From Arcobacter sp. CECT 8986 (lineage in GTDB: Bacteria; Campylobacterota; Campylobacteria; Campylobacterales; Arcobacteraceae), in NCBI RefSeq assembly GCF_004116725.1, contig NZ_PDKG01000004.1, forward strand, positions 186,001-250,000: a stretch of DNA of 64,000 nt, written 5' to 3'. Both the position numbers and the translations under genes were made by a program. How positions within the stretch are numbered: position 1 is the stretch's first letter; each line of letters starts with the position of its first letter. The notes beneath the pieces are model-generated. The model did not search any database, was not told the DNA's origin, and saw only the letters and a program-made list of their open reading frames with translations. Shown here piece by piece: positions 59,708-64,000 of the stretch.

Positions 59708-59778
59708 AAATATTCTTAAATTTATAGCTAAACACTTATAAAAAACTCATTTTAAGAAAACTTTAAAATTTTGTTATG

Positions 59779-59784
59779 TACAAT
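59779..59784 (+). promoter_or_regulatory. -10 box upstream of porin 1
   Basis: TACAAT; a +1 at about 59791 is exactly where the sequence changes from AT-rich to a GC-rich leader. Confidence 0.5.
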
Positions 59785-59790
59785 TTCTAT

Positions 59791-59879
59791 GACGGTGTAT
59801 CGGGATAGTTTCTAAATCCTTTTGGAATGGTTCGCGCGCTCCGGTAATACTGATTATTAAATTTCGAAATTTTAGGAGA
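59791..59879 (+). promoter_or_regulatory. GC-rich, likely structured 5' leader of porin 1
   Basis: About 60 bases (59791-59850) stand out by their GC content in an AT-rich genome. By hand, GTATCGG (59797-59803) pairs with CCG (59841-59843) and ATAC (59847-59850) around a bulged GTA, enclosing smaller stems such as GGGAT with ATCCT (59802-59806 and 59816-59820) as an alternative. A second, AT-rich palindrome at 59859-59872 precedes the AGGAGA ribosome site. A structured leader could stabilise the mRNA of an abundant porin or act as a regulatory switch. Confidence 0.45.
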
Positions 59880-59883
59880 ACAA

Positions 59884-61128
59884 ATGAAAAAATTCGCAAA
59901 AATGAGTTTAGTAGCTGCTGTTGCAGTTGCTGGTCTTACAACTACTTCTTCAGCAAAAGCTTTAGAAGATGCTATTAAAAATGTAGACGTATCTGGTACA
60001 GTTGTATATAGATATGATGATAGATCATACGATAATGGTGCAAAATATGATGCTGATGGTACACACGATGTATCTAAAAATAACTATAAAATTGCATTAA
60101 CTGCAAAAGCTAAAGTAAATGAAGATGTAACTGCTGTTACTAGATTTATCATTGGTGGAGATGATGCAGGTTTTGCTGGATTAAATACAACTACTCAAGG
60201 TGACTCACAAGTTGATGTTACTTTATCTCAAGTATATTTTTCATACACAGGTATTGCAAACACTACTGTTAATGTTGGTAAACAAGGTTTAACAACTCCA
60301 TGGACTGTTGCAGTTGATTCAGATGGTGGTGAGCAAACTGGTACTGGTATCTTAGCATTAACAAATGTTGGTCCTGTTACAATTGCAGCTGCATACTTTA
60401 ATCAAACAAACTTAGGTAAATCTGGTGATGTTTTATCTGATAGAGATTCTACTCTTGCTAAAAGAAATGACAATGTTGATACTTTTGGAGATAAAGCAAT
60501 TGCTACTATTGGTGTAATGGGTAACATTGGACCAGTTGCTTTAGATGCATGGTACTTAAATATGTCAGATGTTCTTGATACATATACTGTTGGTGCTTTA
60601 GCTAAATTTGATATCTCTGATGTTAAATTATCAATGGGTGCTAGATATACATCTTTAGATTTAGATGATGAATTTGCTCCAGATGCAGAAAAAAATGATA
60701 ATGCATTAGGTAAAGTTTTCGTTGCTGCTAAAATGGGAATTTTTGATGCAAAAGTTGCTTATGGTTGGACTGATTCAGAAGGTGGTATTGGTGCTTTAGA
60801 TAATAGTGCTAAAACAAACTTAGATGGATGGACTTTAACATTAAATAATCACACTGATGCTGAGTTCCTTATGACTTCAGTTGGTGCTCAAGTTTTACCA
60901 TCACTTAACTTAGCATTACACTATAACCAACTTGACCAAGATATAAAAGGTGCTTCAGATACAACTGATAGCGAATTATATCTTCAAGCAACATACCAAA
61001 TGTCTAAAAACTTTGGTGGATATATCAGATTCGGTAGAGCAGATAGAGAAGATGACTATACTGAACATGGAGATACTAAAGATAACGATGGAACTATTGG
61101 AAGACTTCAAGTACAATACTCTTTCTAA
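59884..61128 (+). CDS. Major outer-membrane porin (Campylobacter MOMP-like), copy 1
   Basis: The 414-residue protein has a signal peptide (1-26, cleaved after Ala26 near KA-LED) and a beta-barrel pattern of alternating hydrophobic residues with Asp/Gly-rich loops, ending in a C-terminal aromatic (Phe), typical for BAM recognition. It resembles Campylobacterota major porins that allow small solutes through the outer membrane. The first 38 residues are identical to the second porin at 63179. A strong terminator follows. Its leader is unusual and is described separately. Confidence 0.88.
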   Translation: MKKFAKMSLVAAVAVAGLTTTSSAKALEDAIKNVDVSGTVVYRYDDRSYDNGAKYDADGTHDVSKNNYKIALTAKAKVNEDVTAVTRFIIGGDDAGFAGLNTTTQGDSQVDVTLSQVYFSYTGIANTTVNVGKQGLTTPWTVAVDSDGGEQTGTGILALTNVGPVTIAAAYFNQTNLGKSGDVLSDRDSTLAKRNDNVDTFGDKAIATIGVMGNIGPVALDAWYLNMSDVLDTYTVGALAKFDISDVKLSMGARYTSLDLDDEFAPDAEKNDNALGKVFVAAKMGIFDAKVAYGWTDSEGGIGALDNSAKTNLDGWTLTLNNHTDAEFLMTSVGAQVLPSLNLALHYNQLDQDIKGASDTTDSELYLQATYQMSKNFGGYIRFGRADREDDYTEHGDTKDNDGTIGRLQVQYSF

Positions 61129-63178: not shown

Positions 63179-64000
63179 ATGAAAAAATTCGCAAAGATGA
63201 GTTTAGTTGCTGCAGTTGCAGTTGCTGGTCTTACAACTACTTCTTCAGCTAAAGCTTTAGAAGATGCTATTAAAAATGTAGATGTATCTGGAGTTGTTAC
63301 TTATAGATATAATGACTATGAAGATAATTATGATGATAAAAATGGAGATGGAAATAAAGAGCACTTTAGTAAGTCTTCAAATAACTACAAAATTTCTTTA
63401 AACTTAAAATCTAAAGTAAATGAAGATGTTACAGCTAATACTAGATTTATTATTGGTGGACAAAATTCTGCAAGTGAAGCTTCTTTAAGTACTCACAATG
63501 ATGGTGATGGACAATTAAATGTTACTTTATCTGAAGTAAACTTTGTTTATACAGGTATTGCAAATACTTCTATTACATTTGGTAAACAAGCACTTGCTAC
63601 TCCATTTACAATGGCTAGAGATTCAATGGGTAATGAACAAACTGGTACTGGAGCATTAGCAGTTACAAACTTAGGACCAGTTACATTAGCAGCTGCATAT
63701 TTCAACCAAACTAATTTAGGTGGCGGAAATAGTGATATTACAAAAACTTATGGTGAAATATCTGACCAATTAGATGTTAATGATGATAAAATTGGAGATA
63801 TTACAGGTGATGAAAATGTAGTATTTGTTGGAGCTATGGCTTCATTTGCTGGAATTAATATAGATGCTTCATACATTGACTTACAAGATATTGCTGATGC
63901 ATATACTGTAGGATTAGCAGCTTCTTATAATGTTGGTGATGTTAAGTTAAGTCCATATGTAAGATACTCTTCTTTAGATTTAGATGACACTTCAGCTGAT
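63179..64000 (+). CDS. Major outer-membrane porin, copy 2 (cut by the window end)
   Basis: The ATG at 63179 opens a frame that stays open for 274 codons to the end of the window. The signal peptide and first 38 residues are identical to porin 1 (only six synonymous base changes in the first 114). The later parts diverge: loops such as YEDNYDDKNGDGNKEH near residue 46 are more acidic, while barrel strands such as EQTGTGALAVTNLGPVTLAAAYFNQ are similar. It is a paralogue from duplication; the C-terminus lies outside the window. Confidence 0.88.
   Translation, partial: MKKFAKMSLVAAVAVAGLTTTSSAKALEDAIKNVDVSGVVTYRYNDYEDNYDDKNGDGNKEHFSKSSNNYKISLNLKSKVNEDVTANTRFIIGGQNSASEASLSTHNDGDGQLNVTLSEVNFVYTGIANTSITFGKQALATPFTMARDSMGNEQTGTGALAVTNLGPVTLAAAYFNQTNLGGGNSDITKTYGEISDQLDVNDDKIGDITGDENVVFVGAMASFAGINIDASYIDLQDIADAYTVGLAASYNVGDVKLSPYVRYSSLDLDDTSAD

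What the first reader, a model, noticed from the sequence alone, without database searches (positions are those of the whole stretch)
59779..59883. GC-rich structured leader on the mRNA of porin 1, absent from its paralogue
The sequence turns from AT-rich to GC-rich exactly where a TACAAT box predicts the transcript to start (about 59791) and returns to AT-rich after 59850. A seven-pair helix with a bulge closes the segment, and a second palindrome lies before the ribosome site. The second porin has the same coding start but only an AT-rich leader. This points to an RNA element: a stabiliser, an sRNA target, or a ligand or temperature switch controlling outer-membrane composition. I do not recognise it as a known riboswitch.
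Basis: partly seen in the sequence, partly recalled or inferred. Interest (0 to 1): 0.6.

Follow-up and report, generated by a model that had tools for sequence, protein, structure and literature searches.

The report
Conserved folded leader on porin mRNA
The messenger RNA for one major outer-membrane pore protein in Arcobacter-type bacteria begins with a short folded RNA whose two stems have been kept by matching mutations across the family; it most likely protects the message from decay and carries an unidentified recognition loop.

Summary
In this Malaciobacter genome the MOMP-family porin gene (59884-61128) has a GC-rich leader. It forms P1 (59793-59804 with 59840-59852), P2 (59810-59816 with 59821-59827) and, between them, a lopsided internal loop with a nearly invariant GUUCGCGCG. 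The element occurs once per genome in 60 of 104 Arcobacteraceae genomes; in the 59 I could parse it lies before a porin start. I found none in other families. Stem sequences differ, but cognate arms pair far better than swapped ones, even with one genome per genus and within one genus, so this is a real structured RNA. The -10 box ends exactly 8 nt before P1 in 55 of 59 genomes, so P1 should be a 5'-terminal hairpin. Paralogous porins lack it. Rfam has no match. CsrA and Hfq are absent from the family, and the genome holds no complement of the loop at up to one mismatch, which argues against the usual sRNA or CsrA explanations. The ribosome site is not hidden and there is no terminator. Best explanation: a 5' mRNA stabiliser of the ompA/vacA type against an RNase J-based decay system, with the conserved loop a docking site for an unknown factor. 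Structure is shown; function is inferred.

The parts
59751..59767 (+). Near-palindromic promoter-upstream box TTTAAGAAAACTTTAAA, conserved in most relatives
   Evidence: position; relatives. Possible operator; not tested
59777..59784 (+). Extended -10 box TG-TACAAT; predicted transcript start about 59791-59792
   Evidence: a -10 hexamer ends 8 nt before P1 in 55 of 59 homologues and 7 nt in the other 4; preceded by TG in 51. Start site inferred, not mapped
59793..59804 (+). P1, 5' arm (CGGUGUAUCGGG)
   Evidence: pairs with 59840-59852; covariation
59805..59809 (+). Internal loop, 5' side (AUAGU here; A-rich AAAAG-type in most relatives)
59810..59816 (+). P2, 5' arm
   Evidence: sequence hypervariable among relatives, pairing kept
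59821..59827 (+). P2, 3' arm
59828..59839 (+). Internal loop, 3' side with the nearly invariant GUUCGCGCG (59830-59838)
   Evidence: GUUCGCGCG in 54 of 59, UUCGC(A/G)C in all 59 parsed (the parse required this core)
59840..59852 (+). P1, 3' arm (UCCGGUAAUACUG, one bulged base)
59859..59872 (+). Palindrome AAATTTCGAAATTT next to the ribosome site; kept in most relatives, replaced by other palindromes or lost in some
59874..59878 (+). Shine-Dalgarno AGGAG, mostly unpaired in the ensemble
59884..61128 (+). MOMP-family porin gene that carries the leader
   Evidence: PF05538, E 4.3e-31
63179..64000 (+). Paralogous MOMP porin (runs off the window) with an AT-rich leader and no element
   Evidence: the model finds one copy per genome

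Best explanation
The first ~60 nt of the porin transcript are a conserved cis-acting RNA: a 5'-terminal hairpin (P1), an asymmetric internal loop with GUUCGCGCG, and an apical hairpin (P2). It leaves the ribosome site open. It most likely works as an mRNA stabiliser: P1 begins 1-2 nt from the predicted 5' end and so would block 5'-end-dependent decay (pyrophosphate removal and the 5'-3' exonuclease RNase J), giving a long-lived message for an abundant outer-membrane protein. The conserved loop is probably a docking site for an unidentified protein or small ligand that tunes this. Shown: the element, its pairing, strand, position, single copy and absence from paralogues. Inferred: the transcript start, stabilisation, and the docking role of the loop.
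For: Structure: P1 and P2 form in all 59 parsed leaders. Cognate P1 arms average -11.9 kcal/mol against -9.2 when swapped, and P2 -6.8 against -3.1, 0 of 10,000 permutations each. With one genome per genus every resampling gave p < 0.05, and within genus g10 alone P1 p=0.0024 and P2 p<0.001. The plus strand folds better in 49 of 51. Position: P1 starts 8 nt after the -10 hexamer in 55 of 59. One copy per genome. The 14 Aliarcobacter-type leaders read that lack the loop keep the promoter and a fold-back at the same place; the nine folded all form a simple hairpin. RNase J is present in 103 of 104 genomes. Precedent in the same phylum: a stem-loop at +4 to +30 of H. pylori vacA lengthens mRNA half-life (PMC4843948); E. 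coli ompA is the classic case (Emory et al. 1992, cited in PMC7509114).
Against: No transcript start, half-life or probing data exist here. A pure stabiliser needs pairing only, so it does not explain why GUUCGCGCG is nearly invariant. RNAalifold found no consensus structure on the MAFFT or model-based alignments, which I attribute to a one-base offset between two subgroups and to unalignable P2 arms. In 14 of 59 leaders the minimum-energy fold of the whole leader does not contain the outer P1 pairs.
Confidence: 0.5

Rival explanations
1. Protein- or self-regulated translational switch: a factor binds the internal loop, and when P1 opens its 3' arm (CUCC/UCC) pairs with the Shine-Dalgarno GGAG and shuts translation.
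For: In the CUCC subgroup the P1 3' arm is complementary to GGAG, and pairing with the ribosome site reaches 0.57 probability in the most extreme leader. The loop-side GGA/UCC pairs of P1 are the most constant.
Against: Mean probability of that pairing is only 0.12 and it is 0.01 in the window's own leader. Group II leaders have GUCC or AUCC, and some lose UCC.
Confidence: 0.15
2. Riboswitch: the internal loop binds a small molecule or ion and controls porin output.
For: A short, nearly invariant, asymmetric internal loop between two covarying stems looks like a ligand pocket.
Against: No terminator and no hidden ribosome site on average, so no evident expression platform. One gene, one family of bacteria, whereas riboswitches usually spread over several genes and lineages. 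No Rfam match.
Confidence: 0.1
3. Target site of a trans-acting small RNA that pairs with GUUCGCGCG.
For: The conserved stretch is largely unpaired (mean 0.64 at 37 C), and porins are classic sRNA targets in other bacteria.
Against: No complement of GTTCGCGCG at up to one mismatch anywhere in the genome, and none of GCGCGCTCCG. Hfq and CsrA are absent from all 104 family genomes. A 7-bp or G-U-rich seed is not excluded.
Confidence: 0.06
4. RNA thermometer or salt-sensitive fold that melts to expose the ribosome site.
For: The palindrome 59859-59872 can form weak pairs next to the SD, and many of these bacteria are marine.
Against: SD accessibility is much the same at 20 and 37 C (0.57 and 0.61). 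The conserved structure lies upstream of the SD and does not include it. The palindrome is lost in several genomes that keep the element.
Confidence: 0.04
5. DNA-level element (operator or cruciform) and not an RNA.
For: The invariant GCGCGC core could also be a protein-binding DNA site.
Against: Strong strand asymmetry: the plus strand folds better in 49 of 51, and G-U pairs are common. P1 keeps a fixed offset from the predicted transcript start.
Confidence: 0.04

Closest known systems
E. coli ompA 5' stabiliser hairpin (Emory et al. 1992, cited in PMC7509114)
   Same: 5'-terminal stem-loop on the mRNA of an abundant outer-membrane protein, ribosome site left open
   Different: No known counterpart of the invariant GUUCGCGCG internal loop; ompA works against RNase E, while this family encodes RNase J (RNase E was not searched); not homologous by any test here
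Helicobacter pylori vacA 5' UTR stem-loop (PMC4843948)
   Same: Same phylum, hairpin at +4 to +30, shown to lengthen mRNA half-life, more so under acid or salt stress
   Different: A simple 27-nt hairpin of one gene and species; no two-stem architecture with a conserved internal loop
rne 5' UTR sensor stem-loop of E. coli (listed in PMC7509114; details from general knowledge)
   Same: Conserved stem-loop of a 5' UTR that a trans-acting protein recognises
   Different: Regulates RNase E itself; no sequence relation tested
Unnamed Arcobacter-confined GC-rich intergenic motifs of Stav et al. 2019 (PMC6429828)
   Same: Same way of finding them (GC-rich intergenic stretches in Arcobacter sp. L), same clade; this element may be among those left unnamed
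   Different: The main text mentions neither a porin nor this element; the supplementary tables could not be read here

Membership tests
Any Rfam 15 family | Match of the element to a curated covariance model | tested here: not met
   only chance matches below gathering score, none on the element, also for ten diverged relatives
5'-terminal mRNA stabiliser hairpin (ompA/vacA type) | Stem-loop within a few nt of the transcript's 5' end | tested here: met
   P1 starts 8 nt after the -10 hexamer in 55 of 59 genomes; transcript start itself only predicted
5'-terminal mRNA stabiliser hairpin (ompA/vacA type) | Pairing conserved by compensatory change | tested here: met
5'-terminal mRNA stabiliser hairpin (ompA/vacA type) | Longer mRNA half-life that depends on the hairpin | not testable with these tools
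   needs rifampicin decay assays
CsrA/RsmA target leader | CsrA encoded in the genome | tested here: not met
   PF02599 in 0 of 104 family genomes, controls positive
Hfq-dependent sRNA target | Hfq encoded, and a complementary RNA in the genome | tested here: not met
   Hfq in 0 of 104; no complement of GTTCGCGCG at up to 1 mismatch
RNA thermometer (ROSE, fourU) | Shine-Dalgarno paired in the low-temperature fold | tested here: not met
   SD unpaired 0.57 at 20 C and 0.61 at 37 C on average
Riboswitch | Conserved aptamer-like loop | tested here: inconclusive
   invariant asymmetric internal loop, but no known ligand class
Riboswitch | Expression platform (terminator or SD sequestration) | tested here: not met
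   no terminator; SD not sequestered on average
Leader peptide (upstream ORF) | Conserved reading frame | tested here: not met
   distance from P1 to the loop falls in all three frames; the ATG at 59789 is found in only 2 of 59

The most novel reading that the evidence does not exclude
The GUUCGCGCG internal loop is the receptor of a new regulatory RNA class: an unknown protein or metabolite binds it and sets the amount of the major porin after transcription, in a bacterial family that has neither Hfq nor CsrA.
Probability: 0.25. Interest if true: 0.75.

Novelty: new variant of a known kind. Interest (0 to 1): 0.52.

Why it matters
It adds a covariation-supported RNA element, absent from Rfam, that marks one porin out of several in each genome across most Arcobacteraceae genera. 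Post-transcriptional control of porins is well known in enterobacteria through Hfq and sRNAs, but this family has neither Hfq nor CsrA, so how it would control its outer membrane after transcription is open. The element gives a defined 60-nt bait for finding the factor, and genomes that lost only the loop offer a natural comparison.

Tried and rejected
RNAalifold on the MAFFT alignment and on the model-fitted alignment gave no structure. The two subgroups (GCGCGCUCC and GCGCGUCC) differ by one base before P1's 3' arm, and P2 arms do not align; I therefore used alignment-free arm-swapping tests. Because model R1 was built from that imperfect alignment, its sensitivity outside the family is limited. 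Single-sequence folding energy is not significant for the whole leader. The two weak model hits outside the family (E 0.03-0.04) lie beside or within unrelated genes. The hit of the promoter box elsewhere in the genome is inside a coding region. The short ORF ATGACGGTGTATCGGGATAGTTTCTAA at 59789 was rejected because only two genomes have it. A pseudoknot of UUCG with the TTTCGAAA palindrome was considered and dropped: genomes lose one and keep the other.

Full report
What is there. The gene at 59884-61128 is a porin of the Campylobacter MOMP family (PF05538). A second MOMP gene starts at 63179, and a third match to the family lies elsewhere in the genome. Between an extended -10 box (TG-TACAAT, 59777-59784) and the Shine-Dalgarno AGGAG (59874-59878) the leader is GC-rich, 0.46 in a 50-base window against about 0.16 upstream.

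The RNA. The leader folds into P1 (59793-59804 with 59840-59852; 12 pairs, one bulge), P2 (59810-59816 with 59821-59827) and a lopsided internal loop between them whose 3' side holds GUUCGCGCG. I collected leaders from the family by DNA similarity and parsed 59. Both stems form in all 59. P2's sequence is nearly free to vary while its pairing is kept. P1's upper part changes as CCGG/CCGG, UCGG/CCGA, CUGG/CCAG, UUGG/CCAA, UCAAG/CUUGA and CCAAG/CUUGG.

Statistical support. I compared the pairing energy of each genome's own arms with arms swapped among genomes. P1: -11.9 against -9.2 kcal/mol; P2: -6.8 against -3.1; no permutation of 10,000 reached the observed value in either. Relatedness can inflate such a test, so I repeated it with one genome per genus (12 genera): p < 0.05 in all 300 resamplings for both stems. 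Within genus g10 alone P1 gives p=0.0024 and P2 p<0.001; other genera are too uniform to be informative, apart from a weak P2 signal in g2 (p=0.04). Pair counting on the imperfect MAFFT alignment also beat its shuffles. The plus strand folds better than the minus strand in 49 of 51 distinct elements, so the element acts in the porin's sense RNA.

Position. The -10 hexamer ends exactly 8 nt before P1 in 55 of 59 leaders and 7 nt in the other four; the two bases before P1 are AA in 54. If transcription starts 7-8 nt after the hexamer, as is usual (general knowledge), the RNA begins 1-2 nt before P1. This fixed register is what a 5'-terminal hairpin requires.

Distribution. A covariance model finds the element at strong scores in 60 of 104 Arcobacteraceae genomes, once in each; the parsed leaders precede an ORF with the MOMP start signature. 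Among 399 genomes sampled from the order the only hits outside the family are two weak ones beside or within unrelated genes. MOMP genes of other families in the order have short AT-rich leaders without it. In 14 Aliarcobacter-type leaders the promoter and ribosome region are kept but GUUCGCGCG is gone; nine were folded and all form a simple hairpin at the same place. Basal genera g8, g9 and g13 have a diverged form, ACAUUGUG-CUGG ... GCGCAUCCAG ... CACAA. Paralogous porin genes lack the element.

What it probably does. No terminator follows it. The ribosome site is mostly open at 20 and 37 C. Rfam has no match, also for diverged relatives. CsrA and Hfq are missing from all 104 genomes, with positive controls. 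The genome has no complement of GTTCGCGCG with at most one mismatch. These results argue against attenuation, a thermometer, a CsrA site and an ordinary sRNA target. RNase J, whose known activity includes 5'-3' exonuclease digestion (general knowledge), is present in 103 of 104 genomes. A hairpin at the very 5' end is a known way to slow decay: E. coli ompA (PMC7509114) and, in the same phylum, H. pylori vacA, where breaking a +4 to +30 stem-loop shortened half-life (PMC4843948). I therefore favour a stabiliser. The invariant loop is more than a stabiliser needs and suggests a bound factor; its identity is unknown.

What is uncertain. Transcript start, half-life and binding are untested. In some leaders of the CUCC subgroup the P1 3' arm can pair with the Shine-Dalgarno (up to 0.57 probability), so a translational switch there is not excluded. 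RNAalifold did not find the structure on automatic alignments.

Novelty. Stav et al. 2019 (PMC6429828) scanned GC-rich intergenic regions of Arcobacter sp. L and left most motifs confined to the genus unnamed. The present element may be among them, but the main text names no porin and I could not read the supplement. I found no paper describing it.

Noticed in passing
window 59751-59767: Near-palindrome TTTAAGAAAACTTTAAA just upstream of the porin -10 box is conserved in most relatives, including those that lost the RNA loop; the window has no other match within 2 mismatches. Possible binding site of a response regulator.
   Followed up: partly
window 59859-59872; L186-L188 upstream of MOMP: The palindrome AATTTCGAAATT next to the Shine-Dalgarno also occurs in MOMP leaders of another family of the order (f13), within a short hairpin close to the predicted transcript start.
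   Followed up: no
window 59884-59970 and 63179-63265: The two MOMP genes share a nearly identical coding start (first 38 residues the same), which suggests gene conversion or recent duplication, while their leaders are unrelated.
   Followed up: no
L065, L067-L069, L072, L073, L075, L124-L130: Small-genome Aliarcobacter-type species keep promoter and a fold-back leader but lack GUUCGCGCG: a natural loss series for seeking the factor that binds the loop.
   Followed up: partly
L063, L131, L132, L207: Basal genera (g8, g9, g13) carry a diverged form of the element (UUGUG-CUGG ... GCGCAUCCAG ... CACAA; GUGCAUCCUAG in L207) that model R1 does not detect.
   Followed up: partly
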